From: Ramlibacter sp.
GTDB taxonomy: Bacteria; Pseudomonadota; Gammaproteobacteria; Burkholderiales; Burkholderiaceae_C
Direction of reading: 5' to 3'
NCBI GenBank assembly: GCA_019449555.1
Contig: JAGRPN010000253.1
Coordinates: 1 to 39,470, forward strand
Length of the DNA: 39,470 nucleotides
Shown here in pieces: positions 1,210-29,631 of this stretch; positions within the stretch are counted from its first letter, which is position 1; each line of letters begins with the position of its first letter. Under the pieces are notes generated by a model, which ran no database searches, was not told where the DNA came from, and was given only the letters and a program-made list of their open reading frames with translations. Both the position numbers and the translations under genes were made by a program.

Positions 1210-2517
1210 TCACCAGTATCGAAAAGCGCCCCGATAGATGGACTCGAGATCCGCCTTGGATACGCTGCGCGGCGCCATGACGAGCGGGCGCTGCTGGGCG
1301 AAAGCGCCCTCGGCCAACGCCGGCACGTCGGTTTCGCCGTAGCCGAGGGCGGCGATGCCGGACGGCAGCCCGGTCTCGCGCATGAGAGAGATGAATGCGC
1401 CTGCAAGGATTTCTCCTGCATCGCTCGGTGTCGCGCCGTCCACCTTCGCTCCCATTGCCGCGGCCGCCTCCAGGTGGCGGGCCGGATTGGCGGAGGCGGT
1501 GAACCGGAACGCGGCCGGCGCATTGACGACGACCGCGATTCCGTGCGGGACCATCGGGTCATGTTCCTCGTACCCGCTGGCGGTGAACACGTGCTTGAGC
1601 GTGGCGACCGAATACGACATCGCGTGAGGGATGTGAACACCGGCGCTGCCGAACGCCAGGCCCGCGAGTGTCGAGGCGAACATCAGTTGATGCCGCGCTT
1701 CCGTATCCGTCTTGTCCCGCACCGCCCGCGCCAGAAAGCGCCCGCCGAGTCGGATTGCCGCGATGGCGCCAATGTCGTTGTAGGGCGTGGAGCCCTGATA
1801 GGGCGGACGCTGGCTCGGGTGAGCAGGACGCGGTCGGCTGGTAAACGGCCGCGCCGTGTACGACTCCACCGCGTGGGTGAGCACGTCGAAGCCGCAGGCC
1901 GCGACCACGCCGCCCGCCAAGGTCTCGGTGGTCGTGGGATCGACGATTGCCAGGCTGGGCTTGAGCATCGGCGAGGCGATGCCGGTCTTCAGGCCGACGG
2001 ACTTGAGGTCGAGAATGGCGATCCCGGTCGTCTCGCTGCCGGTTCCGCAGGTGGTCGGGCAGGCGATGTGCGGCTTGAGCCGGCCGGGAACGGGCTTGCC
2101 CTGGCCGATCGGCGCGTTCACGTACGCAATCAGCTCGTCCGGGTAGGTGGAGAGCAGATTCGCAGCCTTGGCCGTGTCGATGACGGACCCGCCGCCCAGG
2201 GAGACGAAGCCGTCGAATGCGCCCTCGCGGGCGAACTTCGCGGCGGCCTCGAAGGAATTGCTGTCCGGTTCGTGGCGCGCGCGGTCGAAAATCGCCACAT
2301 CGATGCCGCTCTCGCGCAGTGCGCGCACGGCAGTCTCACCCGGCTCGCTGGCGAGGACGTGCGCATCGACGAACATGCCAACGCGCTTCATGCCGAGCGC
2401 CTGCGCATCCGCGCCCAGTTCGCGCAGCGCACCGGCGCCGAATTTGATGGCTGAGGAATTGACCGAGAAGACGGTCTCGCCTTCACCGGGGGAAAGAAAG
2501 GTTGTGTTCGTCGGCAT
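1210..2517 (-). CDS. Iron-containing alcohol dehydrogenase, hydroxyacid-oxoacid transhydrogenase (ADHFE1/HOT) type
   Basis: 435 residues from the ATG at 2517, which has AAGGAG about 10 bases upstream; the longer open frame to 2673 has no good start. The family is the group III Fe-dependent alcohol dehydrogenases: NAD-binding SLGGGSVIDTAK at about 107-117, CPTTCGTGSETT at 153-164, and metal-ligand positions D211 and H215 (GFDVLTHAVESY), H298 (VHIPHAMSYSV) and H325 (MVPHG). The insert TARPFTSRPRPAHPSQRPPY (221-240) is characteristic of the HOT subfamily. Known reaction: 4-hydroxybutyrate + 2-oxoglutarate = succinate semialdehyde + D-2-hydroxyglutarate, without free NAD turnover. It appears to be a single gene, divergent from the glycine-zipper gene at 2676. 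Whether the true substrate is 4-hydroxybutyrate cannot be told from sequence; a plain alcohol dehydrogenase role is the alternative. Confidence 0.88.
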   Translation of the reverse strand: MPTNTTFLSPGEGETVFSVNSSAIKFGAGALRELGADAQALGMKRVGMFVDAHVLASEPGETAVRALRESGIDVAIFDRARHEPDSNSFEAAAKFAREGAFDGFVSLGGGSVIDTAKAANLLSTYPDELIAYVNAPIGQGKPVPGRLKPHIACPTTCGTGSETTGIAILDLKSVGLKTGIASPMLKPSLAIVDPTTTETLAGGVVAACGFDVLTHAVESYTARPFTSRPRPAHPSQRPPYQGSTPYNDIGAIAAIRLGGRFLARAVRDKTDTEARHQLMFASTLAGLAFGSAGVHIPHAMSYSVATLKHVFTASGYEEHDPMVPHGIAVVVNAPAAFRFTASANPARHLEAAAAMGAKVDGATPSDAGEILAGAFISLMRETGLPSGIAALGYGETDVPALAEGAFAQQRPLVMAPRSVSKADLESIYRGAFRYW

Positions 2518-2675
2518 GGGCTTGCACTCCTTGAGGTCAGCAATGCATGCGAGTATGAACGTGAACTCGCAGGGCGGACCGCCCAAGCGGCTGTGACAAT
2601 CAGTTGCCAGCTCAGCTGTAGGCGTGCCAGACTCAGGATTCGTTATCAGCAGATCACAACTGGAACCAGCCAACC

Positions 2676-4209: not shown

Positions 4210-5637
4210 TCAGGGCTGAATTGCCGGTGGGTGTCCCCGGGCGGCCGGCCCGAGCCCCGACTCGCGGATGATCTCGGCCAGCACGTCCTCGTTGCGGTGA
4301 CCCATCACGTGGACGCCGGCAACGCCCTCGATCGCCGCGAGCGCCCGGATGATCTCGATGCACGCGCGCTTGCCCTCGAGGCGCTGGTCGCCGGCGCGGC
4401 CGATGCGCTCGAGCAGTGGGGCCGGCACGTGCACGCCGGGCACATGGGCGGCCATCCACGCCAGCGCCTTGGCGCTGCCCAGCGTGCCGACGCCGACGAT
4501 CAATTTCGCCTGGCGATGCAGGTCGCGCCGCCGCACCTCCTGCATGAAGTCCTCCAGCAGCTGCAGGTCGAAGCAGAATTGCGTCTGGATGAATCGCGCG
4601 CCTGCGACGATCTTCTTCTCCAGGTTCGCCACGCGATCGCGATAAGGCGGCACGAACGGATTGGCCGTGGCGCCGATAAACAGGTCGGGCGGCGTTTCCA
4701 GCTTGCGCCCCGAAGCGAACTGCCCCTGGTCGCACATGCCGCGCGCGATGTGCAATAGCGACACCGCATCGAGGTCGAACACCGCCTTGGCCTGCGGGTG
4801 GTCGCCCTGGCTCACGTCGTCGCCGGTGAGGCACAGGATGTTCTGCACGCCGAGCGCGGCGGCGCCCAGGATGTCGCCCTGAATGGCGATGCGGTTGCGG
4901 TCGCGGCACGTGATCTGGTACACGGCCGGGTAGCCGTGCGCCACCAGGATCGCGGAGGCGGCGACGCTGGACATGTGGCAGTTGCCGCCCGCGCCGTCGG
5001 TGACGTTGATCGCATCGACCAGCCCCTGGAATCGCGCTGCCCGCTGCAACAGCGCCTGCGGGTCGGCCGAATCGGGCGGGCCGACTTCGACCGTCACGAC
5101 GAAGTCGCTCGAGCGGCACGCCTGCTCGAACGGGCCGAGCTTCGATTGCGCCGTGCGGCGCTCGCCCACCGGCGGCTGGAACGCCGGTTCGGGGTGGCCC
5201 TCGATCACGCGGATCCAGGTGGAACGGCCGGCATTGCGCGCATCGATGGCGGGCAACAACGGCGTGGGGTGCGCCAGGTGGTCGGCGGCAACGCGCTTGG
5301 TGCCCTCCGTGGCTTCGACCCACACGCAGCGCATCCGCGGATCGACCTCGCAGGTTCCGTCGGCCCGCACACCGCCGCACGGCCCGTTGCGCATCTCCTT
5401 CGGGCAATTCATCGGGCAGGCCATGCCGGTGGCCGAGAGCACGCATTGACCGCACTCGCGGCAGTCGAACATCAGGCGTTTGGCCGCGCGCTCCACGGGC
5501 TGCAACAGCGCTTCCGCCCGGCGGCTGCCCAGCCATCGCACCACAGGAGCGAGCACTGGCGCGAGCCGCGAGAAGAACACATACAGGCGGCGCAAGCCGC
5601 GCGCGTGGCGGACGGACCAGAGGCGAACGGTGTACAT
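4210..5637 (-). CDS. Methylenetetrahydrofolate reductase with N-terminal MetV-type cysteine domain
   Basis: 475 residues from the ATG at 5637 (AAAGAGG upstream). Residues about 1-110 match the so-called MTHFR C-terminal domain, here at the N-terminus, with eight cysteines (C59, C62, C65, C74, C78, C87, C96, C104; core CRECGQCVLSATGMACPMNC). Residues about 180-460 form the MetF TIM barrel (VVTVEVGPPDS, DAINVTDGAGG, YQITCRDRNR, NILCLTGDD, FIQTQFCFD). Known chemistry: methyl-THF <-> methylene-THF with flavin; in acetogens the cysteine domain is a separate subunit, MetV. Last gene of the seven-gene operon, 13 bp after the amidohydrolase. In a catabolic route it would run in the oxidative direction, turning the captured methyl group into methylene-THF. 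The electron acceptor is unknown. A housekeeping MetF for methionine synthesis is less likely given the fusion and the context. Confidence 0.87.
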   Translation of the reverse strand: MYTVRLWSVRHARGLRRLYVFFSRLAPVLAPVVRWLGSRRAEALLQPVERAAKRLMFDCRECGQCVLSATGMACPMNCPKEMRNGPCGGVRADGTCEVDPRMRCVWVEATEGTKRVAADHLAHPTPLLPAIDARNAGRSTWIRVIEGHPEPAFQPPVGERRTAQSKLGPFEQACRSSDFVVTVEVGPPDSADPQALLQRAARFQGLVDAINVTDGAGGNCHMSSVAASAILVAHGYPAVYQITCRDRNRIAIQGDILGAAALGVQNILCLTGDDVSQGDHPQAKAVFDLDAVSLLHIARGMCDQGQFASGRKLETPPDLFIGATANPFVPPYRDRVANLEKKIVAGARFIQTQFCFDLQLLEDFMQEVRRRDLHRQAKLIVGVGTLGSAKALAWMAAHVPGVHVPAPLLERIGRAGDQRLEGKRACIEIIRALAAIEGVAGVHVMGHRNEDVLAEIIRESGLGPAARGHPPAIQP

Positions 5638-5650
5638 GCGCGGCCTCTTT

Positions 5651-6868
5651 TCAATGGGCTGCCGGCGCGAGGGGCTCGGGCAAGGAGCGTGCCCAGACGC
5701 GCTGGGGATGGCGCAGCACCTGCCGATCGGCGAACGGCGATGCGGCAAATTGCACGGCCTCGAACGGCGTACCGGTGGCCAGCAGCGGATGCGGATCGCC
5801 GAAGTGGCGCCGCGGCTCGCTGGTGGCGGCCTGCAGCACCGCAGCCATCGGCAGGCCGGCGTCGAGAAAGCGGTCGATCTCGTCGGCCATCGCTGCGCCA
5901 TGTTCGACGCCCATGCTGCCGGCGTCGGTGCCCATCAGCAGCCGCACGCCCATCCAGTGCGCAAGGTGCAGGTGTTCGGCGTGCGCGTCGAGGATGCGCC
6001 GCAGATGGCCCACCGTCTGGGCCGGCCAGCCGGCGGCCGAAGGGTGGGCCCACTGGAAATGCACCGGGCAGAACGTGGGCGTCCAGGCGAGGTCCCGGTC
6101 GCGCATCAACGCCAGCGTCGCCGGGTCCATGAAGAAGCCGTGCTCGATCGAATCGACTCCGGCGGCTGTCGCTGTCGCGAGCCCCTTCAGGCCGCTGCAG
6201 TGGGCCATCACGCGGCGCCCCGCGGCGTGCGCGGTTTCCACCACGCTGCGTGCCTCCTCGAGCGTGAACTGCGGCTCGTCGGTGACTGCGCCGGCGTCGA
6301 AGTCGATGATCCCCGTCAGGATCAGTTTGATCTCGTCGCTGCTGCGGGCGAGTTCGCGCACCGAGGCGCGGATGCTGTCGTCGTCGCCCACATCGGTGGC
6401 CATGAAGGCGCCATAGCGCTTGGCGCGCTTCACGCCCAGCCCGATCGACCGCACCTGCGCCATTGCGCTGCCCGGTACGCGCGCCTCTTCCCGCAGCCGG
6501 TGATTGATGGCGTGCCGGTCGCCGCCGTCGCGCACCAGCGTGACGCCGCACGCCAGCGCCTGCGCGGCGCTGCGGCGCGCCGTAGCCGTCAAGGCTTCGA
6601 GCGGCTGCTTCAAGTGCTCCGAGCGCAGTTTCGCGTCGGTCGTCGCCCCATCCAGGAACAGGTGGACGTGCGAGTCCACCAACCCGGGCATCACGAACGC
6701 GCACCGCTGGACCGGCCATCCCTGCGCGCCGAGCGCCGCGGCGTGATCGCCGGTCGTCACGTCGGCCAGCCGCCCGTCCACCACCGTCATCGTGGTGCGA
6801 CCCGCGTGCCGCCGTTCGCCGTCGAACCATTCGTCGACGACCAGCGCGAACGCATTGGGCGGGTTCAT
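5651..6868 (-). CDS. Metal-dependent amidohydrolase (imidazolonepropionase/HutI-like)
   Basis: 405 residues. The ATG at 6868 overlaps the stop of the pterin methyltransferase gene as ATGA, so translation is coupled. It is an amidohydrolase-superfamily barrel with complete-looking metal site: DSHVHLF (H-x-H after strand 1), the probable carbamylated lysine in DEIKLILTG, histidines in VMAHCSG and SIEHGFF, and the catalytic aspartate in MGTDAGS. N- and C-terminal segments form the usual small beta domain. It resembles HutI, prolidase and aryl-ester hydrolase branches; the substrate cannot be assigned. From memory, a hutI-like gene also sits in cmu (chloromethane) clusters of Hyphomicrobium and Methylobacterium. 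Two possibilities (inference): it releases the methylated substrate from a larger amide, lactone or carbamate, or it acts on a folate- or product-derived cyclic amide. It has no signal peptide and should be cytoplasmic. Confidence 0.85.
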   Translation of the reverse strand: MNPPNAFALVVDEWFDGERRHAGRTTMTVVDGRLADVTTGDHAAALGAQGWPVQRCAFVMPGLVDSHVHLFLDGATTDAKLRSEHLKQPLEALTATARRSAAQALACGVTLVRDGGDRHAINHRLREEARVPGSAMAQVRSIGLGVKRAKRYGAFMATDVGDDDSIRASVRELARSSDEIKLILTGIIDFDAGAVTDEPQFTLEEARSVVETAHAAGRRVMAHCSGLKGLATATAAGVDSIEHGFFMDPATLALMRDRDLAWTPTFCPVHFQWAHPSAAGWPAQTVGHLRRILDAHAEHLHLAHWMGVRLLMGTDAGSMGVEHGAAMADEIDRFLDAGLPMAAVLQAATSEPRRHFGDPHPLLATGTPFEAVQFAASPFADRQVLRHPQRVWARSLPEPLAPAAH

Positions 6869-7752
6869 GCCTTGTACAGCTTTCGCACGGCGCGCAGCGC
6901 ATTCGTGCCGGTCTGCTCGAGGAAATTCCGGTAGGCGGCGAGCACGTAGTTGTCGTCGGCCAGCGGCGCGTAACCGCGCCACGGGGTGCCCAGTACGGTG
7001 TCGAAACCGTACGGCACCGCCAGCGTGAGGAAGGCGTTCTCCAGTTGGTGTTTCAGGTCCGATCCGTCGGCGGCCTTGGGCGGCAATTGCTGGCCGATGT
7101 TCGACAGGCCACCCATCATGTGCAGGCCTTTCAGGTCGGGGTCGCTGCCGATCAGCTTCACGGCCTCCAGCGTGCCGCGGTTCAGGCCTTCGGTGTCCGC
7201 AACGATGGCCGACACCGACAGGTCGATGATGATGTCGTCCGGCGGCATGCCGTATTCCTGCCGCAGGCGCAGTGCGGCTCGCTTGGCGGTGCCGGCGATG
7301 TCAGCAGCGCTCTTGTTGTTCCTGGCCACGCCGTCCTCGACCCGCTCCGAGGCCATCACGATGACCTTGAACGGGCGCTGCCGGTACAGGCTCATCGCGC
7401 TCCAGCGATGCTCGGTGATCGAGTTGACGATCGGCAGGGCGCCGCCCGCACGTTCCTGGTCGTAGGCCTGCAGGCACACCTCATGGGCCTGCACGCTGGG
7501 CACGTCGAATGACAGCGGCAGCGTGACCACCGACTGGATGGCATGAATGGCTTCGGTGAGGAAGACCGGATCGGTCAGCGCGCGGGCGCCGATGTTCACG
7601 TTGAGGTACGACGCACCGGCCTGCGCTTGCCTCACAGCCAGGGCCTGGACGCCCGGCAGGTCCGAGTTGTCGAATAGCGCCTTCGTGCTTTTGAAGCCCG
7701 GGTTGATGCGCTCGCCGATGATCGTGATGTCGAATGCCTGGGAGTCGTTCAC
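6865..7752 (-). CDS. Corrinoid:tetrahydrofolate methyltransferase, pterin-binding (DHPS-like/MeTr, CmuB/MtvA-like)
   Basis: 295 residues from a GTG at 7752 that overlaps the TGA of the reactivase gene (GTGA); the longer open frame upstream is a shadow of that gene. It is a single TIM barrel of the pterin-binding family: IGERINPGF at the start, GASYLNVNIG, LPLSFDVPS, LPIVNSIT, and GGLSNIGQQLP near the C-terminus. These match the methyltransferase (MeTr/AcsE) branch rather than dihydropteroate synthase. Predicted step: transfer of the methyl group from methyl-cob(III)amide on the corrinoid protein to tetrahydrofolate, the role of CmuB in chloromethane users and of methyltransferase II in acetogenic O-demethylases. 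Cytoplasmic. The next gene, the amidohydrolase, starts inside its stop codon. Direction and partner are inferred from context. Confidence 0.87.
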   Translation of the reverse strand: MNDSQAFDITIIGERINPGFKSTKALFDNSDLPGVQALAVRQAQAGASYLNVNIGARALTDPVFLTEAIHAIQSVVTLPLSFDVPSVQAHEVCLQAYDQERAGGALPIVNSITEHRWSAMSLYRQRPFKVIVMASERVEDGVARNNKSAADIAGTAKRAALRLRQEYGMPPDDIIIDLSVSAIVADTEGLNRGTLEAVKLIGSDPDLKGLHMMGGLSNIGQQLPPKAADGSDLKHQLENAFLTLAVPYGFDTVLGTPWRGYAPLADDNYVLAAYRNFLEQTGTNALRAVRKLYKA

Positions 7753-9587
7753 GGCGCTGCTCTCGTTGAAGTGTCGAAGCCGATGTGGTGCAGAAAGGCC
7801 TTCTGGAACCCGGGCTGCGTGCTGAGCTCCACGTAACGGCAGCGGGCGGCCAGTTCGGCGGCCTGTTCGCGCGCGCGGCCCGAGGCGAGCATGCGCTGCA
7901 CGCCCATCCCTGCGGCGTTCCCGACCTGCACGAAGCGCTCCGGTGGCAGCGCCGGGAACAGGCCCGTATCGATTCCGCTCTGGACGTGGATGTAGGCGCC
8001 GAACGCGCCGGCGATGATGACCTGGTCGATGTCTGCGGCGTGCAAGCCGGCTTGGCGCAGCAGCAGCTCGACCCCGGTGCGGATCGCGGACTTGGCCAGT
8101 TGCACCGCGCGCACGTCGTCCTGATTGAAACTCACGCCCTCGGCCAGATGCGCGGCGCGCTTGCCATCGTGCTCGCCCACCGCGGGGTGCGCGGCGTTGA
8201 GCCGCCCTCGGTCGTCGACCATGCCCGCGCGGTGCAGCGTGGCTACCGCGTCGAGCACGCCGGAGCCGCACAGGCCGACCGCCGTTGTCCTGCCGATGAC
8301 TTTGAGCGCGAGCGAACCATCCGCCGCCAGCGCGACACGCTCGATCGCCCCCTCGGCCGCGCGCATGCCGCAGGAGATATGGCCGCCTTCCAGGGCCGGT
8401 CCCGACGGGCAGGAGGCGCTCGAGATGCGGCCGTCGTGAATGAGCGAAATCTCGGTGTTGGTGCCGATGTCCATCAGCAGGCTCGTCTTGCCGCCGGCCC
8501 AGAGCTCCTGGGTGGCGAGCAGCGCGGTGACATGGTCGCCGCCGACGAAACCGCCCACGTTCGGCGCGACGTGGACATAGGCGCCGGGGCAAATCGCCAG
8601 GCCGAGTTCGCGCGCCTTCACGTCCATGCCCTGGCCCGTCGCCGCGACGAACGGTGCGCGGCCGAGCTGCGATACCGGCAGGCCCAGCAACAGATGCTGC
8701 ATTGCCGTGTTGCCGCAGACCACCACGTCGATGACGTCCGTCGGCGCGGCGGCCACCGCCCGGCACAGGTCGTGCGCGAGCGCATTGAGCGCTGTGGCGG
8801 CCGCTGCGCGCAGTTCGTCACCGCCGGCGGGCTGCACGATGGCGTGATTGACCCGGCTGATCACGTCCGCGCCCCAGGCCATCTGCGGGTTCTCGATCGC
8901 CAGGCTGGCGAGGCGCCGGCCGCTTTCCAGGTCGACGAGGAAAGCTGCGATATTGGTGGTGCCCAGATCGACGGCGAGTCCCAGGCAGGCGCTGCCCGGC
9001 GCCGCGACACCGATCAGCTCTTCATGCCGCAGGTGCGCACGCACCGACCACGAATGTGCGCGCAATACGCCGGGCAGCTGCCGCACCGCCGCCAGGTCCA
9101 GGCGCAAGTGTTGGCCGGGCAAGGCGCGGCGCACCCGCTCGAAGTCGCTGGCCGGGTCAGCCAGGCTGGCCGGCGTCACGCTCACATCCACGCTCCTGAT
9201 CACCGGGTCGAGCGGCAGCGGCTCGGCGCTGGCGCTGCCCGGCACATCGGCGCGTACCACCGGCGCCAGCGAACGCGGCGCGACCTCCACCGTGCAGTCC
9301 GACACGGCCCGCAATTGGCAGGCGCGCTGCCATTTGCCACGCTTTGCCCCGGTCGCATCGGAGTCGCGGCGGGTGTGCACACTGTGCTCGACCTCGCCTT
9401 CGATCACATGGACGGAGCAGGTGCCGCAGGTGCCGCGACCGCCGCAAGCGCCCACGATCCGCACGCCATTGCGGCGCGCGCTCTGGAACAGCGTATCGCC
9501 GGCCTGAGCGGTGATGACGCGCTCCAGGTGCGCGAAGCGCACGCTGTGCGCTGGCGGCGTGGCGGCGATGCTGGCCTGGTCAAGCAT
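7749..9587 (-). CDS. RACo-like corrinoid protein reactivase ([2Fe-2S] ferredoxin + ASKHA/DUF4445)
   Basis: 612 residues from the ATG at 9587. Residues 15-100 are a plant-type [2Fe-2S] ferredoxin with C48, C54, C57 and C90 (core GACGGRGTCGTCSVHV). From about 190 onward comes the RACo middle and ASKHA ATPase module: VDLGTTNIAAFLVDL (phosphate-1), LLMDIGTNTEISLI (phosphate-2), GHISCGMRAAEGAIE, GLCGSGVLDAV, and the C-terminal GAFGAYIHVQSGIDTGLFPALP signature. Known role: ATP-dependent one-electron reduction of inactive cob(II)amide to cob(I)amide in corrinoid methyltransferase systems (RACo of acetogens, RamA-type function in methanogens, activating enzyme of Acetobacterium dehalogenans). Its presence inside the operon is strong evidence that the corrinoid protein cycles through Co(I). 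It is 36 bp after the activation-domain gene and 4-bp coupled to the pterin methyltransferase. Confidence 0.9.
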   Translation of the reverse strand: MLDQASIAATPPAHSVRFAHLERVITAQAGDTLFQSARRNGVRIVGACGGRGTCGTCSVHVIEGEVEHSVHTRRDSDATGAKRGKWQRACQLRAVSDCTVEVAPRSLAPVVRADVPGSASAEPLPLDPVIRSVDVSVTPASLADPASDFERVRRALPGQHLRLDLAAVRQLPGVLRAHSWSVRAHLRHEELIGVAAPGSACLGLAVDLGTTNIAAFLVDLESGRRLASLAIENPQMAWGADVISRVNHAIVQPAGGDELRAAAATALNALAHDLCRAVAAAPTDVIDVVVCGNTAMQHLLLGLPVSQLGRAPFVAATGQGMDVKARELGLAICPGAYVHVAPNVGGFVGGDHVTALLATQELWAGGKTSLLMDIGTNTEISLIHDGRISSASCPSGPALEGGHISCGMRAAEGAIERVALAADGSLALKVIGRTTAVGLCGSGVLDAVATLHRAGMVDDRGRLNAAHPAVGEHDGKRAAHLAEGVSFNQDDVRAVQLAKSAIRTGVELLLRQAGLHAADIDQVIIAGAFGAYIHVQSGIDTGLFPALPPERFVQVGNAAGMGVQRMLASGRAREQAAELAARCRYVELSTQPGFQKAFLHHIGFDTSTRAAP

Positions 9588-9623
9588 GTCGGCGGGCTCT
9601 CCTGGTGCGCCTGCGGCTCGGGG

Positions 9624-10310
9624 TCAGGCAGCTGCGGCCGCCGCGAGCGCGCGGGAACGCACGCCACATTTGTCGCGCGAGTTGCATGCATCGCAGCGGG
9701 ACCAGGTGCTGGCGGGCAAGTCGATGCCCACGCCCAGCACCATCGAGGTCGATTTCAGCGGGTGCATCAGGAGCGAATCGCCCAGGCTGATGCCGATGCG
9801 TTCGGCCCCGGCGAGGCGAAGGACGGCGCCCTGCGCGTCCAGCGCGAGTCCGGGATCGCCCGCGCGCAACTCGCCGCTCATCGTTAAAGCGCGCCGCCCA
9901 GCATCGGCTTGCATGCGGTCCTGGGCGCGGCGGCCGACCTCGAACAGCAATTCGTTGCCCAACTCGTTCAGGGCCATGGCGAGCGACGCGCGATGCTGGG
10001 CAAACAGCTCGCTGACGCGCCGTTCCAGGCCCGGGCCGAGCGTGCACGCGCCGCACGCGAGCGCGGTGAGCTCTCCGCATGTGGGCAACAGCCACGGCGC
10101 CTCCAGCGCCTCGCCACCGGCGCGCAGGACGGGCGCCGGCGCGCCTTCCAGCGGCACGATCTGGTAGCTGTAAGCGGCTTGAACGAGTGAATCGTCGCGC
10201 GCCATGGCCAGCGCCTGCGCACGCAGCCGGGTGCGCGCGGGCGAGGGCCGCCCGCTCAGGGGCGCGGTCCGCGCATGCCGCAGGACGTCCAAGCCGCGCG
10301 CGACCCCCAT
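9624..10310 (-). CDS. MetH-activation-domain-like protein with C-terminal cysteine motif
   Basis: 228 residues. The ATG at 10310 is three bases after the UroD-type gene stop (TGAGCGATG). The sequence follows the vitamin-B12-dependent methionine synthase activation-domain pattern found beside corrinoid methyltransferases: SYQIVPLEG near 49, TCGELTALACGACTLGPGLERRVSELF (78-104), ALNELGNELLFEVGRRAQDRMQ (113-134), and ERIGISLGDSLLMHPLKSTS (170-189). It ends in CX2CX5C (C206, C209, C215: CDACNSRDKCG). In MetH this domain binds S-adenosylmethionine for reductive methylation of cob(II)alamin. Here the role is probably a partner in corrinoid docking or reactivation. Whether it still binds SAM is unclear: the RxxxGY signature of MetH is not evident to me. 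The C-terminal cysteines may hold zinc or an Fe-S cluster. Co-occurrence with a RACo reactivase in one operon is notable. Confidence 0.7.
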   Translation of the reverse strand: MGVARGLDVLRHARTAPLSGRPSPARTRLRAQALAMARDDSLVQAAYSYQIVPLEGAPAPVLRAGGEALEAPWLLPTCGELTALACGACTLGPGLERRVSELFAQHRASLAMALNELGNELLFEVGRRAQDRMQADAGRRALTMSGELRAGDPGLALDAQGAVLRLAGAERIGISLGDSLLMHPLKSTSMVLGVGIDLPASTWSRCDACNSRDKCGVRSRALAAAAAA

Positions 10311-10313
10311 CGC

Positions 10314-11579
10314 TCACCCCGCGTATTTGCGGGCCGCGTCGAACATGGCACGCACGTTCGCCACCGGCGTTTCGTCGGGGATGCCGAACGCGCAATCGAG
10401 GATCAGCTTGCCGCCTTTGTGGAAGACGTTATCGGCGAGGTGTTTCACGGCCGCGTCCACTTCATGCGGCTGGCCGGTGGTCATCATCGAGGGCGACAGG
10501 TTGCCGCGCAGGGCGACCACGTCGCCCAGCACCTCGAACGCCTTGACCATGTCGGTGCGCTCGAACCAGTAGATGCACTTGCCGGCCGGCACGTCCTTGA
10601 TGATCTCCAGGCGCTTGGTGCAGTCGGCCTCCCACAGCGGCATCGGGATCAGCCCTGCGTCGATCAAGCCGATCATCATCTTGCGGAACGACGGCCACCA
10701 GAACTCGCGGAACTGCTTGTCCGACATGAAGGCGTCGGGCGCCCAGTGGGTCGGAATGAACACGATCGGGTTGCCCGAGCCCTTGGCATTGGCGACCGTC
10801 ATGCGCAGCAGGAAGATCGACGCCTTGTCGAGCATCTGCAGCAACTTGTCCCGGTTGCGATACAGGTCGGTCATCATCCCGCGGGCGCCGCGGAAATAGT
10901 CCGCGATGAAGTCGTAAGGCGACACGGAGGCCGAGCCGTTGGTCACCGGATAGCCGAGCTGCGTCATGCGGTCGGTGAACGCCACGTGGTGCTGCATGAA
11001 GCGGTGGGCTTCTTCAGCCGCCTTGACGACCCTCTCCAGCGCCTCGCGCACTCTCGGCTTGGCGAATCCGCGGATGCCCGCGACCAGCCGGAAATAATGC
11101 AGGCCCGGAAAAATCGGCAGTTCCTCGAAACCCTCGAAAGCGCTGGCCACGCGCGGCAAGTAGGTGTGCAGGTAATAGCCGGTGGGGTCGAACAGGAAGT
11201 CGTCGTATTCGTCGGCCTTCATGTATTCGCGATCGAGGTACTGGAAGGGCTGGTTGTCGCCGACACCGTGCCCGGGCCACTGCAACTGCTTGTAGCCCAG
11301 CGCCTCGAGCGTGGGGCCCGAAGTGGTCGACAGGAGCAAAGTGCTGTAGACGTCCGGATCGAACTCGAGCACCGCGCGCTCGGCGACCTCCTTGGTCTTT
11401 TCGTAGTCGTACATCAGCTCGCGGCAGTTCACGCCGGCGTATTTGCCCAGCCAGAAAGTGGCATACATCGCCACCGGCATGCGGTCGGGCTGCTTGAGCG
11501 CCACGCAATCCATGATGCGCTGCCAGCGCGCGTCGTACGCGGCCTTGGCGCCGGCGTCCTGTTCGACGACGGCGTTCAC
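10314..11579 (-). CDS. UroD-family methyltransferase (substrate:corrinoid methyltransferase)
   Basis: 421 residues from a GTG at 11579 that overlaps the corrinoid gene stop as GTGA, with GGGAG just upstream; an upstream ATG at 11606 lies inside the previous gene and is less likely. It is a uroporphyrinogen-decarboxylase-fold TIM barrel: ALKQPDRMPVAMYATFWLGKYAG (27-49), FIPTHWAPDAFMSDKQFREFWWPSFRKM (274-301), KAFEVLGDVVALRGNLSPSMM (346-366), GGKLILDCAFGIPDETP (389-405). Known relatives use this fold to move methyl groups to or from corrinoids (MtaA/MtbA, CmuA). The HxC zinc motif of MtaA is not present; the aligned place reads WEADC (E317, D319, C320), while the distal cysteine, C396, is kept. 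True heme-pathway UroD is excluded by context and by this motif. The methyl donor is unknown. By position it is the substrate-specific enzyme of the operon. Confidence 0.85.
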   Translation of the reverse strand: MNAVVEQDAGAKAAYDARWQRIMDCVALKQPDRMPVAMYATFWLGKYAGVNCRELMYDYEKTKEVAERAVLEFDPDVYSTLLLSTTSGPTLEALGYKQLQWPGHGVGDNQPFQYLDREYMKADEYDDFLFDPTGYYLHTYLPRVASAFEGFEELPIFPGLHYFRLVAGIRGFAKPRVREALERVVKAAEEAHRFMQHHVAFTDRMTQLGYPVTNGSASVSPYDFIADYFRGARGMMTDLYRNRDKLLQMLDKASIFLLRMTVANAKGSGNPIVFIPTHWAPDAFMSDKQFREFWWPSFRKMMIGLIDAGLIPMPLWEADCTKRLEIIKDVPAGKCIYWFERTDMVKAFEVLGDVVALRGNLSPSMMTTGQPHEVDAAVKHLADNVFHKGGKLILDCAFGIPDETPVANVRAMFDAARKYAG

Positions 11580-12238
11580 GCTGTCGCTCCCATCCAGTTC
11601 TTGCACAGGTTCACGGCTTCGACCGCGTTCACGCCGAAGGCGTCGGCGCCGGTGTAGGCGCGCACGGTTTCGTCGATCTGCCCGCCGCCGATCATGATCT
11701 TCAGCCCGTCACGCCGGCCGGCGTGGTCGATGGCCGCGATGGTTTCCTTCATCGAGTCGAACGCCAGCGTGAGGAAGCCGGACAGGCCGACCACGTCGGG
11801 CTTGAACTCGTCGATCGCGCCCAGGAAGGTGTCGATCGGCACGTCGATCCCGATGTCCCTCACTTCGAACCCGTTGATGTCGAGCATGAAGCTGACGATG
11901 TTCTTGCCGATGTCGTGGAGGTCGCCATGCACCGTTCCGATCAGCACCTTGCCGAGCTTGCGGCTCGCCTCGCCGGGCTTGACCTGGATCAGGGGCTTCG
12001 CGATCGCGCCGATGGTTTCCAGCATCTCGCCGGCCAGCACCAGTTCGGGCAGGAAGTACTCGCCTTCCTCAAAACGCTTGCCGACAATGTCCATCGCGGC
12101 ACGGCAGAGCTCGAGCACCCGCACAGGGTCCTTGCCTTGGTCGACCAGCATGCGCCTGGCCGCTGCCAGCGCTTCGTCCTCGTGCATGTCGGCCATCCAT
12201 TCGACGAGTTGGCGCTCTTCGTCGTTCCAGTCGCTCAT
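11576..12238 (-). CDS. Corrinoid (B12-binding) protein of a methyltransferase system
   Basis: 220 residues from the ATG at 12238, preceded by two GAGGAG motifs. Residues about 8-90 are the four-helix methionine-synthase-type cap; 95-215 are the Rossmann cobalamin-binding domain with the base-off/His-on signature D106-x-H108-x-x-G111 (GTVHGDLHDIGKNIV), then GLSGFLT at 151-157 and IGGG at 183-186. This is the MtaC/MtbC/MtvC class: H108 coordinates cobalt and the protein shuttles the methyl group between the substrate methyltransferase and the pterin methyltransferase. First gene of the operon, with its promoter and a MarR operator 98-117 bp upstream. In CmuA the equivalent domain is fused to the UroD domain; here the two are separate but overlap by 4 bp in the same order of partnership. 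No B12 riboswitch is apparent in the roughly 80-nt leader. Confidence 0.93.
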   Translation of the reverse strand: MSDWNDEERQLVEWMADMHEDEALAAARRMLVDQGKDPVRVLELCRAAMDIVGKRFEEGEYFLPELVLAGEMLETIGAIAKPLIQVKPGEASRKLGKVLIGTVHGDLHDIGKNIVSFMLDINGFEVRDIGIDVPIDTFLGAIDEFKPDVVGLSGFLTLAFDSMKETIAAIDHAGRRDGLKIMIGGGQIDETVRAYTGADAFGVNAVEAVNLCKNWMGATA

Positions 12239-12322
12239 GGGCTTGTCTCCTCGGTCTCCTCGGGCCTGCGGTCCGCTCGCGCGGTGGGTGACTCGAACGC
12301 GCCGTGCCCCCGAGCCGATGCC

Positions 12323-12351
12323 ACACTAGCCCCGTTTAGTTGGCATGTCAA
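12323..12351 (-). promoter_or_regulatory. Sigma-70 promoter of the corrinoid methyl-transfer operon
   Basis: Reading leftward, a perfect -35 TTGACA (12351-12346), a 17-bp spacer, and TAGTGT as -10 (12328-12323; three of six consensus bases). Predicted start near 12316, giving a leader of about 78 nt before the ATG at 12238. The -35 hexamer lies wholly inside the MarR-type palindrome, so a bound repressor would cover it. Confidence 0.65.
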
Positions 12352-12355
12352 CTAA
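12336..12355. promoter_or_regulatory. MarR-family operator at the operon promoter
   Basis: TTAGTTGGCATGTCAACTAA is a 20-bp palindrome with one mismatched pair (TTAGTTGGCA against TTAGTTGACA on the other strand). Length and form are typical for MarR dimers, and a related palindrome sits upstream of the adjacent marR-type gene, identical at 14 of 20 positions. Confidence 0.75.
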
Positions 12356-12476: not shown

Positions 12477-13052
12477 TTACTCGTCCGTGGCCGCCCGCGC
12501 ACGCCGGCGCCGCGCAGCCTGCGGGAAACGCTGCGCGACATACCGCTCCGTGGCTGCCTCGACCGCGGGCAGATTTCGGTGCAGGCGCTGCAACAGGCCG
12601 ATCAATGTCTCCAGTTCGGCCGGCTGCAGCACTTCCACCAGCGCGCGCTCACGCTCCAGTGCGATTCCGATCATCTGGTCGTGCAGCTTGCGGCCTTTGG
12701 GCGTCAGCTTGGCGATGCGCAGCCGGCCGTCGGCATCGTCGAGCGCCATCGTGATCAAACCCCTGGCCTGCATCCGCTTGAAACAACGGCTGACCGAAGC
12801 CTTGTCCATGCCGATGATGCGAGAGACCCGCTGCGCGGAGATCGAATTCTCGATCGCGAGCAGCATCAGGCAACGCCAGGTTTCGATGCCGACGTCGAAA
12901 ACGTTCAGGTAGTGCTGCGAAGCGCCGCGCTGCAGCTTGCTGGCGATCCAGCTCAGGAATGCGGGCAGGTAGCGCTCCAGGTCCTCGACGCTGGCGATTT
13001 GGCGCCTCGGTGGGCTTTGGGCAGGAGGTTGGCGGCGTGCGAGCTGGGTCAT
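12477..13052 (-). CDS. MarR-family transcriptional regulator
   Basis: 191 residues from the ATG at 13052 (MTQLARRQ); an in-frame ATG at 13076 would start within 1 bp of the upstream palindrome and is less likely. Winged-helix domain: TWRCLMLLAIENSISAQRVSRIIGMDKASVSRCFKRMQARGLI (helix-turn-helix and recognition helix, about 68-110), then the wing DDADGRLRIAKLTPKGRKLHDQM. The C-terminal part is the dimer helix ending in an Arg/Ala-rich tail. Predicted to repress the adjacent operon and itself: both promoters carry a similar palindrome over the -35 box. The ligand is presumably the methyl donor or a product, unknown. It is 238 bp upstream of the corrinoid gene, same strand. The predicted promoter (TTGCAA, 17 bp, TACAAC at 13064-13069) would give only about 5 nt of leader, so the mRNA may be nearly leaderless. 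Confidence 0.88.
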   Translation of the reverse strand: MTQLARRQPPAQSPPRRQIASVEDLERYLPAFLSWIASKLQRGASQHYLNVFDVGIETWRCLMLLAIENSISAQRVSRIIGMDKASVSRCFKRMQARGLITMALDDADGRLRIAKLTPKGRKLHDQMIGIALERERALVEVLQPAELETLIGLLQRLHRNLPAVEAATERYVAQRFPQAARRRRARAATDE

Positions 13053-13076
13053 GAGCAGCGGTGGTTGTAGCAGCAA

Positions 13077-13178: not shown

Positions 13179-14486
13179 TCAGGGTAATTTCACGGCCTGG
13201 ATATCGGCCTTCGCGCCGATCCCGAGGGTCTTCACGAACGAGACGAAGTGGCCGCGGGTCGTGATGTTGTCGTCGTGCACGGCGAACCCCACGTTGTACA
13301 CGCCGCCCGCCTTCAGCGTCTTGTCGTCCGGGTTGGCAAGCCCCAGCGGGCGCACCAGCACGACCGTCCAGACGCCGTCCTTCCAGTCGGCAATGGCATT
13401 GTTGTCGGCGGCCGAGCCCTTCGCATCCTCACGGCTCACCACGTAGTCCGGGATCATGTCGCCTTCCTTCCAGTTCGCGTTCGGGTCGAACGGCACGGCG
13501 TTCTTCTCGCGAACCAGGAAGTGCTCGCCCTTGCGCAGCTGGTCGGCATTGATCGACTTGTAGCCCGTCTTCTTTTCGTCCCACATGAAGCGGGGCGTAT
13601 GCGTCTTCGGATCCGCGTTGCTTGCGAACATGTCCTTGCCGGCATCGCTCAGGCGCCATTCGAGGACATAACCGTCGTCGGCCATGCCCACCGGATAGCT
13701 GCGATGCGCGCGCCACTGGATCAGGTCCACGAACTTGCCGTCGGCCTTGAGCTTGGCGATCTCCTCGACGCTCTTGCCGGTCTTCCAGTCGCTCGGGTCG
13801 ACGCGGGTGTCGGGCAGGTACTTGCGCACGTCGGTCTTCTTGATGGCGTTCAGCAACGGATTCGCCGCCACTTCTTCCTTGGTGAACTGGTTGCGGCTGT
13901 CGCGCTGGCCATCGTGGCAGGTGAGCCAGCAACCCTGTTGCGCGAAACCCTTCACCTTGCCGTCGTCGATCATGATCGAGAAGCGGTCTTCGTAAATGCC
14001 AGGCTGCTTGCCGTCCTGGACGACCTTGTCGAGTTTCGGATAGCCGTAGACCTTCCACTCCTTGCCATCGAAGCGCAAGTACTGGTGTTCGGTACCGGGG
14101 AACGGATTCTGCGTCTTCCATTGCACGCGCACGTACGCATTCTTGTCGTCGTACGCAGCCTGCACGTTGAGCTTGACGGAGCCGTTCTTGCCGGTCACCG
14201 GCGCGGGTTCAAGCGCGCCCGCTTTCACCAGTTTGTCGCCTTTTTCCTGCTCGGCGTCGGACTCGTCATGGCATTGCGTGCAAGCGGTGCCTTGCGCGAC
14301 TTTCGACGCGCCCCCGTGCCCTTTCGAGCGGAGCCACTCGTAAGTGGACTGGCCGGGATAGAACAGCGTGAGGCTGCTGGCGGGCACCTTGCTCCAATCG
14401 ATGCGTGCGGGCTCGGCGGCGAGCGCCGATCCCGCCAGCAGTGCGGCGATGCCGTAGGCGACGGGCAACAATTTCAAGACTTTCAT
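13179..14486 (-). CDS. c-type cytochrome with ethylbenzene-dehydrogenase-like haem-binding domain
   Basis: 435 residues from the ATG at 14486 (GGAGGAA upstream). A signal peptide (to about ALAA, residue 24) sends it to the periplasm. A class c haem site C69-T-Q-C72-H73 lies near the N-terminus. The remainder resembles the EB_dh/cytochrome c-552 haem-binding family (the gamma-subunit fold of DMSO-reductase-type dehydrogenases): KLNVQAAYDDKNAYVRVQWK (about 105-124), VLEWRLSD, then VWTVVLVRPL and YNVGFAVHDDN at the end. A second possible haem attachment site is C186-W-L-T-C190-H191, spaced CX3CH rather than CX2CH. It follows the small cytochrome gene by 80 bp, with a hairpin between, and is probably co-transcribed from the sigma-54 promoter. 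No catalytic molybdenum subunit is nearby, so it is likely an electron carrier; its partner is unknown. Confidence 0.82.
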   Translation of the reverse strand: MKVLKLLPVAYGIAALLAGSALAAEPARIDWSKVPASSLTLFYPGQSTYEWLRSKGHGGASKVAQGTACTQCHDESDAEQEKGDKLVKAGALEPAPVTGKNGSVKLNVQAAYDDKNAYVRVQWKTQNPFPGTEHQYLRFDGKEWKVYGYPKLDKVVQDGKQPGIYEDRFSIMIDDGKVKGFAQQGCWLTCHDGQRDSRNQFTKEEVAANPLLNAIKKTDVRKYLPDTRVDPSDWKTGKSVEEIAKLKADGKFVDLIQWRAHRSYPVGMADDGYVLEWRLSDAGKDMFASNADPKTHTPRFMWDEKKTGYKSINADQLRKGEHFLVREKNAVPFDPNANWKEGDMIPDYVVSREDAKGSAADNNAIADWKDGVWTVVLVRPLGLANPDDKTLKAGGVYNVGFAVHDDNITTRGHFVSFVKTLGIGAKADIQAVKLP

Positions 14487-14544
14487 TCGGATTCCTCCAA
14501 TTGCTCATAAAAAAGAACGCAAGTGCTTGAACACACCCGCCGCT

Positions 14545-14561
14545 GCGGGGACATGCCCCGC
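14545..14561 (-). other. Intercistronic hairpin between the two cytochrome genes
   Basis: GCGGGG (14545-14550) and CCCCGC (14556-14561) form a 6-bp GC stem with a 5-nt loop directly after the small cytochrome stop. There is no uridine run, so it looks like an mRNA-stabilising or attenuating element rather than a full terminator. Confidence 0.45.
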
Positions 14562-14566
14562 TCTGC

Positions 14567-15067
14567 TTACTTCGGAACGTCGCCCGGTTCGGACTTGATC
14601 GTGTAGTCGAGGCCCGGGTTGGCGGGCGTCTTCAGCTTCACGACCTTGATGAAACCGTAGTCCATCTTCTTGTGGCAGCTGTTGCAGTCCTCGATGACCT
14701 TGGTGTACGCCGCTTCGAAGCCGGCGGCGTCCTTGGCCTGGATCGTCTTGTCCACCGCGGCGAACCTGCCTTCGTAGAAGTTCTTCCAGGTCTTGTACTC
14801 ATCCGGCTTGGTCAGCTTGGCCGGGGTCATGGCGCCGTTCATGTACTTGGACATGTAGGCCGCGAGGGCCCAGTTGCCATCCTTGACGGCGAAGTACATG
14901 TTCTGGAACCGGTCACCCACTTCGCGCATGGGGATCGCGAATTTCGGCACGGTGGCCTTGATCGCATCGATCTGCGCCTGCGTTTCCGCATCCGCGGCCA
15001 TGGCCGATCCGGCGGCCAGCGCGAGCAACACACCGGCGAAAGCGGCTCCAACTGTTTTCCTGAACAT
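14567..15067 (-). CDS. Periplasmic monohaem cytochrome c
   Basis: 166 residues; the ATG at 15067 has AGAGGAG about 7 bases upstream. The signal peptide is MFRKTVGAAFAGVLLALAAGSAMAAD, cleaved near residue 24. The mature part is mostly helical, with a single haem motif CNSCH late in the chain (VIEDCNSCHKKMDYGFI, about 130-146), the arrangement of four-helix (class II-like) cytochromes where haem is attached near the C-terminus. The tail is LKTPANPGLDYTIKSEPGDVPK. It is the first gene after the sigma-54 promoter at 15189-15204 and precedes the EB_dh-type cytochrome. It likely passes electrons between that protein and the respiratory chain (inference). The family name cannot be fixed by eye: it lacks the CXXCH-at-extreme-end pattern of cytochrome c'. 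Confidence 0.83.
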   Translation of the reverse strand: MFRKTVGAAFAGVLLALAAGSAMAADAETQAQIDAIKATVPKFAIPMREVGDRFQNMYFAVKDGNWALAAYMSKYMNGAMTPAKLTKPDEYKTWKNFYEGRFAAVDKTIQAKDAAGFEAAYTKVIEDCNSCHKKMDYGFIKVVKLKTPANPGLDYTIKSEPGDVPK

Positions 15068-15188
15068 TGCGAACTCCTCTTTTCAAAGAAATTGGGAACT
15101 GCCCAACACAGTGTTCCGGGTCGGCTTGGTCTGCTCGTGTCTGCTGGTGACGGCGGACGGACCGGGCGAATTCGAACGGCATTCCATG

Positions 15189-15204
15189 AGCAAAGTGCAT
15201 GCCA
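15189..15204 (-). promoter_or_regulatory. Sigma-54 (RpoN) promoter for the cytochrome genes
   Basis: Reading leftward, TGGCATGCACTTTGCT matches the consensus TGGCACG-N4-TTGCW with one substitution; GG and GC are exactly 10 bases apart. Predicted start near 15179, about 110 nt before the cytochrome ATG at 15067. An NtrC-type activator gene lies immediately upstream, which makes the site credible. Confidence 0.75.
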
Positions 15205-15306
15205 AGCACCTACGGGCCGCATCTCACGCGAACGCACCCGGATCGTGGTCGAGAGAGCAGGAGCAGGAATGGAACGGACGGGGGCGGCGCGGCCAGCTTA
15301 CCTTAG

Positions 15307-15348
15307 GTGTCATCACTCAAACGTGACATCTGTCATGTCTTCGTGACA
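15307..15348. promoter_or_regulatory. Probable enhancer (upstream activating) sites for the NtrC-type regulator
   Basis: Five TGTCA/TGACA-type half sites cluster here: GTGTCA at 15307, the palindrome TGACATCTGTCA at 15324-15335, and TGTC-N5-GACA at 15336-15348. They lie 130-170 bp upstream of the predicted sigma-54 start, the usual place for activator binding, and overlap the 3' end of the regulator gene. Confidence 0.5.
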
Positions 15349-29602: not shown

Positions 29603-29631
29603 GTGGCGGGGATCGGCAGAAGGGTCAATTC

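What the first reader, a model, noticed from the sequence alone, without database searches (positions are those of the whole stretch)
4210..12355. Complete corrinoid methyl-transfer operon resembling a split, RACo-equipped version of chloromethane (cmu) clusters, with an unknown methyl donor
Seen: seven leftward genes, four of the six junctions overlapping by 4 bp or separated by 3 bp, encode corrinoid protein, UroD-fold methyltransferase, activation-domain protein, RACo-like reactivase, pterin methyltransferase, amidohydrolase and MTHFR, enough for methyl donor -> Co-CH3 -> CH3-THF -> CH2=THF. Known: cmu clusters of aerobic methylotrophs contain cmuA (UroD + corrinoid fused), cmuB (pterin methyltransferase), hutI and metF (from memory of the Hyphomicrobium and Methylobacterium clusters). 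Inference: this is a separate, RACo-dependent pathway in a denitrifying betaproteobacterium. The substrate could be chloromethane, a methoxylated aromatic, a methylated sulfur or nitrogen compound, or something new.
Basis: partly seen in the sequence, partly recalled or inferred. Interest (0 to 1): 0.88.

Follow-up and report, generated by a model that had tools for sequence, protein, structure and literature searches.

The report
Corrinoid O-demethylase operon in denitrifiers
A seven-gene, vitamin-B12-dependent operon that probably strips methyl groups from lignin-type methoxy-aromatic compounds without using oxygen, in nitrate-breathing Proteobacteria where I found no earlier description of such a system.

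Summary
In detail: seven tightly packed minus-strand genes encode a corrinoid protein, a UroD-fold methyltransferase, a stand-alone MetH-activation-fold protein, RACo, a pterin methyltransferase, an amidohydrolase and a MetV-MTHFR fusion. The group is conserved: all seven occur together in 30 of 80 named relatives, 22 of the 38 with at least 7 kb on both sides. The chloromethane (cmu) comparison fails: against CM4 cmu proteins only the corrinoid domain is detectably similar. Best reading: a corrinoid-dependent O-demethylase for methoxylated aromatic acids (vanillate/syringate type), passing the methyl group to tetrahydrofolate for oxidation. Relatives sit near the oxygen-dependent vanillate O-demethylase VanA in 14 of 80 loci (about 0.4 expected) and near protocatechuate 4,5-dioxygenase LigAB in 6; four run into folD. 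LigA is in 29 of 38 operon genomes, against 50 of 300 in the order. The nearest solved relative, CdmB (a chloromethane enzyme, 2026), lacks the family's invariant His287/Glu326/Arg332. The window's own operon has no VanA or LigAB beside it. Substrate, amidohydrolase and activation protein are untested. New variant of a known kind; the listings of seven library searches showed no such system in Proteobacteria.

The parts
11576..12238 (-). corrinoid (B12) protein, 220 aa
   Evidence: PF02310/PF02607; closest solved chain 4jgi, E 3e-46; DxHxxG-type B12 motif read from the sequence
10314..11606 (-). UroD-fold substrate:corrinoid methyltransferase (MT I), 430 aa from GTG 11606
   Evidence: PF01208; closest solved chain CdmB 9rui, E 9e-33, profile 8.6e-46; model pLDDT 94.7, UroD/MtaA fold; one match in own genome
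9624..10310 (-). stand-alone MetH-activation-fold protein with C-terminal C-x2-C-x5-C, 228 aa
   Evidence: no family hit at 0.001; fold match 1j6r, TM 0.67/0.77; three Cys invariant in 46 of 46 aligned
7749..9587 (-). RACo-type ATP-dependent corrinoid reductive activase with [2Fe-2S] domain, 612 aa
   Evidence: PF14574, PF17651, PF17650, PF00111; best NCBIfam model AcsV, below its cut-off
6865..7752 (-). methyl-corrinoid:tetrahydrofolate methyltransferase (MT II), pterin-binding, 295 aa from GTG
   Evidence: PF00809; best NCBIfam model PRK07535, below its cut-off; 2yci E 2.4e-12
5651..6868 (-). amidohydrolase-superfamily enzyme, 405 aa, role unknown
   Evidence: PF01979; amidohydrolase, prolidase and ochratoxinase structures; candidate metal ligands H67 H69 K181 H223 H243 D315 in 29 of 29 aligned
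4210..5637 (-). MetV-like N-terminus fused to methylene-THF reductase, 475 aa
   Evidence: PF12225 + PF02219; 51-56% to separate MTHFR and MetV proteins of Azoarcus KH32C and Paracoccus aminovorans
12477..13076 (-). MarR-family regulator upstream of the operon (candidate regulator)
   Evidence: PF12802; homologue in the same place in L006 (83%)

Best explanation
The operon encodes a corrinoid-dependent O-demethylase for methoxylated aromatic acids (most likely vanillate, syringate or a close relative), used by facultatively anaerobic Proteobacteria when oxygen-dependent VanAB cannot work. RACo, with the MetH-activation-fold protein as docking or electron-relay partner, reduces Co(II) to Co(I) (inferred). 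The UroD-fold protein presents the aryl methyl ether to Co(I), giving the free phenol and CH3-Co(III) (inferred). The pterin protein passes the methyl group to tetrahydrofolate (inferred from family). MetV-MTHFR, then FolD, oxidise it to CH2=THF and beyond (inferred). The demethylated catechol goes to LigAB meta cleavage or, without oxygen, to another route. Shown here: the genes, their conservation, and the association of relatives with VanA, LigAB and FolD. Not shown: any activity.
For: Gene group conserved: five core genes in 48 of 80 loci, all seven in 30 of 80. VanA_C Rieske O-demethylase genes in 14 of 80 loci, 12 of them co-oriented with the operon or its UroD gene (13 of the 14 re-scanned, all 13 hit PF19112). 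Density in 24 operon genomes (32 matches) predicts 0.38; the VanA label needs at least 9 changes on the UroD tree (13 labelled of 80 rows; quick tree with many weak forks). LigAB in 6 of 80 loci; LigA of L014 above an equivalog cut-off. LigA in 29 of 38 operon genomes against 50 of 300 in the order, 45 above cut-off. VanA-linked L011 and L013 lie in the 11-row clade (support 84) that holds the window protein. FolD or FolB follows the amidohydrolase or MTHFR in L019, L030, L032, L039, L048 and L050: oxidative, folate-linked. Immediate neighbours include DctP and Peripla_BP_6 transporter proteins. Own genome has VanA matches on C452, C269 and C274 (the last two at contig ends) and LigA on C269 and C173. 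Published O-demethylases (MtoB, OdmB, MtvB, VdmB) are UroD-superfamily enzymes working with a corrinoid protein, an activase and an MT II (PMC13222342, PMC8630106).
Against: The window's own operon has no VanA or LigAB on its contig stretch, and nor have its two closest relatives L006 and L007 as far as these loci extend. LigA is common in the window's own family with or without the operon (8 of 9 genomes, own included), so it says nothing there; and the 38 operon genomes are not matched to the order background in taxonomy. The nearest solved relative, CdmB, acts on haloalkanes and not on methoxyaromatics (PMC13222342). OdmB, VdmB, MtvB and MtoB sequences could not be obtained, so a tree with them was not made. 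A zinc motif that I recall for OdmB/VdmB (E-X14-E-X20-H) is absent in 72 of 72. Poisson counts ignore shared ancestry of some loci. In 66 of 80 loci no VanA was found, many of them with short flanks.
Confidence: 0.75

Rival explanations
1. It is a haloalkane (chloromethane/bromomethane) dehalogenating methyltransferase like CdmBCA of Acetobacterium: Co(I) attacks CH3Cl held by the UroD-fold protein.
For: CdmB is the closest protein of solved structure, nearly the same length (429 against 430 aa).
Against: Residues invariant in 72 of 72 aligned members at or near the ends of barrel strands (H287, E326, R332) are W, Q, L in CdmB by the alignment. Neighbourhood of relatives points to aromatic acids. 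The scoring similarity to CdmB lies mainly in the C-terminal half (206-428).
Confidence: 0.08
2. It is a cmu-type chloromethane cluster with CmuA split in two, as first proposed.
For: Similar list of roles: methyltransferase, corrinoid protein, pterin methyltransferase, amidohydrolase, metF (PMC3621897, PMC4197683, passages).
Against: No BLASTP hit at 1e-3 of UroD, pterin, amidohydrolase or MTHFR proteins to CmuA, CmuB, HutI or MetF2; CmuA and CmuC sit on saturated branches of the UroD tree; no ASKHA/RACo or MetV gene is named in the pCMU01 stretches read (part of the plasmid).
Confidence: 0.02
3. Same machinery, other donor: methylated sulfur or nitrogen compound, or a non-aromatic methyl ether.
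For: The MetV-MTHFR is 51-56% identical to the proteins of Proteobacterial quaternary-amine-type modules (Azoarcus KH32C, Paracoccus aminovorans). UroD-superfamily enzymes of mlp clusters are proposed to use methyl-S/Se compounds (PMC10418091).
Against: Those modules carry an MttB-type gene (Paracoccus) or glycine-betaine transporters (Azoarcus); neither is among the 25 of 128 neighbour families that one search shows (the other 103 were not seen). mlp clusters carry several Mlps and the three described lack an H4F methyltransferase (PMC10418091, passages); this operon has one UroD protein and has the MT II.
Confidence: 0.1
4. The pathway runs in reverse: methyl-THF methylates an aromatic or other substrate through the corrinoid protein, as the Emt system methylates estrogens.
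For: Similar lifestyle group (Sterolibacterium and other likely denitrifiers); estrogen methylation by a corrinoid system is published for Denitratisoma (PMC7448270).
Against: EmtA is MtmB-related and the system uses SAM (PMC7448270, passages); the window has a UroD-fold MT I. VanA, LigAB and FolD near relatives fit demethylation and C1 oxidation.
Confidence: 0.05

Closest known systems
Corrinoid O-demethylase systems of acetogens and archaea (Odm, Vdm, Mtv, MtoABCD)
   Same: UroD-superfamily MT I, separate corrinoid protein, ATP-dependent activase, MT II to a folate/pterin carrier (PMC13222342; PMC8630106 passages, which give MtoD an N-terminal 2Fe-2S site).
   Different: Proteobacteria; MT II is of the PF00809 MetH/AcsE kind, whereas the MtoA passage discusses MtrH; extra MetH-activation-fold protein, amidohydrolase and MetV-MTHFR fusion in one operon.
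CdmBCA of Acetobacterium malicum subsp. dehalogenans (chloromethane)
   Same: Closest UroD-fold protein of known structure (9rui); three separate components.
   Different: The cluster is cdmB, cdmC, cdmA only, with the activase elsewhere (PMC13222342); invariant H287, E326, R332 of this family are W, Q, L in CdmB.
cmu cluster of Methylorubrum extorquens CM4
   Same: Corrinoid methyl transfer to folate; an amidohydrolase and a metF on the plasmid.
   Different: Only the corrinoid domain detectably similar.
Quaternary-amine-type modules of Azoarcus KH32C and Paracoccus aminovorans plasmids
   Same: Corrinoid protein, MetV, MTHFR, pterin methyltransferase and ASKHA/RACo in one run.
   Different: MttB-type rather than UroD-fold MT I (seen in Paracoccus); DUF1638 (both) and 'virulence factor' (Azoarcus) genes instead of the activation-fold protein and amidohydrolase.
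LigM/DesA and VanAB O-demethylases
   Same: Same expected reaction on vanillate/syringate; LigM is tetrahydrofolate-dependent (PMC7997838, PMC8027834 passages).
   Different: That LigM needs no corrinoid is recalled; VanAB is reported to need oxygen (PMC7997838 passage). Homology to the UroD protein was not tested.

Membership tests
Corrinoid O-demethylase system (Odm/Mtv/Mto) | UroD-superfamily MT I | tested here: met
   PF01208, fold
Corrinoid O-demethylase system (Odm/Mtv/Mto) | MT I groups with OdmB/MtvB/VdmB/MtoB rather than other UroD clades | not testable with these tools
Corrinoid O-demethylase system (Odm/Mtv/Mto) | separate corrinoid protein, ATP-dependent activase and H4F methyltransferase | tested here: met
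   by family only:
Corrinoid O-demethylase system (Odm/Mtv/Mto) | zinc motif recalled for OdmB/VdmB | tested here: not met
   0 of 72; motif recalled, and PMC13222342 says the Moorella O-demethylase also lacks zinc, so it does not define the whole family
Corrinoid O-demethylase system (Odm/Mtv/Mto) | activity on methoxylated aromatics | not testable with these tools
   gene context only
cmu chloromethane utilisation | CmuA: fused methyltransferase + corrinoid protein | tested here: not met
   two separate genes; no hit to the CmuA methyltransferase part
cmu chloromethane utilisation | CmuB-type MT II | tested here: not met
   no BLASTP hit at 1e-3
Cdm chloromethane system | CdmB-like MT I with hydrophobic haloalkane pocket | tested here: inconclusive
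   homologous mainly over the C-terminal half; three invariant residues replaced in CdmB; pocket not modelled
type 1 mlp gene cluster | several Mlps, no H4F methyltransferase | tested here: not met
   one UroD protein, one pterin methyltransferase
Emt estrogen methyltransferase | MtmB-related catalytic subunit | tested here: not met
   UroD family instead, no other family at 0.001
MetH reactivation domain | MetH activation fold | tested here: met
   1j6r E 7.6e-10
MetH reactivation domain | SAM binding | not tested
   a conserved stretch reads GELRAGDPGL-type; the MetH motif is only recalled, so no verdict

The most novel reading that the evidence does not exclude
Facultative anaerobes keep two O-demethylation systems for the same lignin aromatics, oxygen-dependent VanAB and this oxygen-independent corrinoid system. 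The latter uses a new two-part activator: RACo feeds electrons through a stand-alone MetH-activation-fold protein whose invariant C-x2-C-x5-C holds a metal or Fe-S centre. The conserved amidohydrolase is a new folate C1 enzyme.
Probability: 0.25. Interest if true: 0.78.

Novelty: new variant of a known kind. Interest (0 to 1): 0.62.

Why it matters
Vanillate and syringate are major monomers of lignin breakdown (general knowledge). Their anaerobic demethylation is known in acetogens and some archaea, but the listings of seven library searches showed no paper on a corrinoid O-demethylase in denitrifying or phototrophic Proteobacteria, and a modelling study of Rhodopseudomonas palustris does not settle its anaerobic vanillate route (PMC7997838, passages). 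If right, a widespread group with cultivated members gets a defined gene set for this step, and the operon's two unexplained proteins point to unknown parts of corrinoid activation and folate C1 chemistry.

Tried and rejected
Cmu membership: rejected by direct BLASTP against CM4 plasmid proteins. Emt (estrogen methylation): rejected because EmtA is MtmB-related (PMC7448270). mlp clusters: rejected on gene content (PMC10418091). Amidohydrolase as a PurU substitute (formyl-THF deformylase): not supported, since PurU above cut-off is present in 25 of 29 searched genomes whose locus has the amidohydrolase (one of the four others, that of L010, holds PurU split over two frames) and in 0 of 6 whose locus lacks it; the six lie in one 18-row part of the UroD tree, so the co-occurrence may be ancestry. 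Zinc motif search: absent. Structural second look (pdb_via) unavailable. Neighbouring AMP-ligases and crotonases gave mixed families (10 proteins scanned, of 15 in the three clusters); only L052 shows cyclohexanecarboxylate-CoA ligase and BadI above cut-off, so no general link to the benzoyl-CoA route is claimed. CdmB did not appear among the 50 rows shown of the fold search; that library ends in April 2026, and that 9rui is newer is my inference.
Full report
What is there. The window holds seven minus-strand genes in 8.0 kb: a two-domain corrinoid protein, a UroD-fold protein, a 228-aa protein without any Pfam or NCBIfam hit at 0.001, RACo, a pterin-binding methyltransferase, an amidohydrolase and a fused MetV-MTHFR. 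A MarR-family gene lies upstream on the same strand. The window is C87:1-39470 of a 5.1-Mb draft genome in 458 contigs. nosZ-, nosR- and nosD-type genes at 27593-33503 make a denitrifying host likely.

The unnamed 228-aa protein. A model from 46 aligned members (of 54 clustered, two of them duplicates; mean pLDDT 93.6) matches the activation domain of methionine synthase, best 1j6r at E 7.6e-10. It carries a C-terminal C-x2-C-x5-C that is invariant in 46 of 46. I infer a metal or Fe-S site; this is not shown.

Conservation. The UroD gene is rare: at E 1e-20, 2 of 300 genomes of the order (own included) and 2 of 398 of the phylum (own included). A scan of named genomes gave 80 loci (the best 80 of 86). 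Their titles are mostly of Proteobacteria (beta, alpha, gamma, or unspecified), with a Desulfuromonadales and a Geobacter record, one Terriglobia and one distant Actinomycetes record. Four titles are not marked as MAG: Aromatoleum anaerobium LuFRes1, Azospirillum sp. TSO22-1, Thauera phenylacetica B4P and Paramagnetospirillum caucaseum SO-1. By tblastn and counting, all seven genes occur on one strand around UroD in 30 of 80 loci and in 22 of the 38 with at least 7 kb on both sides; the five core genes in 48 of 80 and 28 of 38. Ten of the 38 have UroD with at most one partner in the counted strand and range, which suggests extra, substrate-specific copies; L008 is among them although a full set lies on the other strand there. 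Nine draft genomes, by accession, hold two or more of the loci.

Substrate. Clustering the genes called in all loci showed recurring neighbours. VanA-type Rieske O-demethylases occur in 14 of 80 loci; 13 of the 14 were scanned and all 13 hit PF19112 (the partial gene of L084 was left out). In 12 they are co-oriented with the operon or its UroD gene, and in L039 and L052 they are not. Operon genomes hold 32 VanA_C matches in 24 genomes (I chose these 24 from loci with operons and mostly long flanks, several already known to carry VanA, so the density is if anything high). That density, with a mean genome of 4.45 Mb, predicts 0.38 in the 1.26 Mb of loci. The Poisson value there ignores kinship. 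On the UroD tree the VanA label needs at least 9 changes, with 13 labelled of 80 rows; that is a quick tree with 25 of 80 inner branches weak, but it speaks for repeated gain or loss rather than one inherited event. LigA and LigB (protocatechuate 4,5-dioxygenase) occur in 6 of 80 loci, with LigA of L014 above an equivalog cut-off. Genome-wide, LigA is in 29 of 38 operon genomes (39 handles, two in one genome) and in 50 of 300 of the order, 45 above cut-off (this background includes the window's genome and G010, both carriers, and is not matched in taxonomy to the 38). Against this reading: in the window's own family LigA is in 8 of 9 genomes anyway, and neither the window nor L006 or L007 has VanA or LigAB next to the operon. 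The window's genome does carry VanA and LigA matches on other contigs, with a GntR gene beside one VanA.

Direction. FolD or FolB genes follow the amidohydrolase or MTHFR in L019, L030, L032, L039, L048 and L050. Among 127 immediate neighbours scanned, the 25 families shown of 128 include GntR, FolD, FolB, VanA_C, LigB, DctP, Peripla_BP_6 and Meth_synt_2. This fits oxidation of a methyl group through tetrahydrofolate. The MetV-MTHFR is 51-56% identical to proteins of quaternary-amine-type modules on plasmids of Azoarcus KH32C and Paracoccus aminovorans, which I read as catabolic too.

Known relatives. Cmu proteins were taken from pCMU01 of strain CM4. Only the corrinoid protein has a hit at 1e-3, to the CmuA C-terminus at 27%. 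The cmu analogy is therefore one of roles. The closest solved protein to UroD is CdmB, the chloromethane enzyme of Acetobacterium. PMC13222342 (outline and parts 1-3 of 11 read) places CdmB near MtoB, OdmB, MtvB and VdmB, all O-demethylases, and reports that CdmB does not use methoxyaromatics. H287, E326 and R332 are invariant in 72 of 72 aligned members; the first two directly follow barrel strands in the model and R332 lies in the helix behind. The alignment puts W, Q and L there in CdmB. This speaks against a CdmB-like pocket, but no ligand or pocket was modelled. I could not obtain OdmB, VdmB, MtvB or MtoB sequences, so membership in that clade is untested.

Amidohydrolase. Six candidate metal-ligand residues are invariant in 29 of 29 aligned (of 40 clustered). 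The idea that it replaces PurU is not supported. Its place next to FolD and FolB in some loci suggests a folate role, unproven.

Verdict. A conserved, probably O-demethylating corrinoid operon of Proteobacteria, likely facultative anaerobes, most likely for methoxylated aromatic acids (0.75). It works like the acetogenic O-demethylases; formal membership is open on two points (clade and activity). Seven of my ten library searches looked for such a system in Proteobacteria. None of the titles listed describes one, but searches listed only 20 of 44, 10 of 17 and 12 of 43 papers, and subscription papers are mostly not held, so this is no proof of absence from print.

Noticed in passing
window 27593-35235 (+): nitrous oxide reductase gene cluster: nosZ (propeller repeats PF18764), nosR-like, nosD, and an ABC-2 type membrane gene.
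   Followed up: partly
window 13179-18091 (-): EB_dh-family protein (PF09459), a small protein with a CxxCH motif, and an NtrC-like regulator / histidine kinase pair directly upstream of the MarR gene.
   Followed up: no
window 1210-2673 (-): iron-containing alcohol dehydrogenase just beyond the operon; nearest NCBIfam models choline dehydrogenase GbsB and ErcA, none above cut-off.
   Followed up: no
L032:16890-18155: FolD fused to FolB in one 421-aa frame directly after the amidohydrolase in Paramagnetospirillum caucaseum.
   Followed up: partly
L050: Two tandem copies of the core module (corrinoid, UroD, activation, RACo, pterin) in one Burkholderiaceae MAG.
   Followed up: no
L038, L042, L073, L082: Cobalamin-independent methionine-synthase-like (Meth_synt_2) genes next to the module.
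   Followed up: no
genomes of L064, L071, L073, L074, L076, L077: PurU above cut-off is absent from these six genomes and the amidohydrolase from their loci, while both are mostly present elsewhere.
   Followed up: partly
L052: Cyclohexanecarboxylate-CoA ligase and BadI above cut-off close to the operon: a possible link to anaerobic ring metabolism in one genome.
   Followed up: no
L088, L089: Plasmid-borne corrinoid / DUF1638 / MetV / MTHFR / pterin / ASKHA modules in Azoarcus KH32C and Paracoccus aminovorans, near glycine betaine transport or an MttB-family gene.
   Followed up: partly
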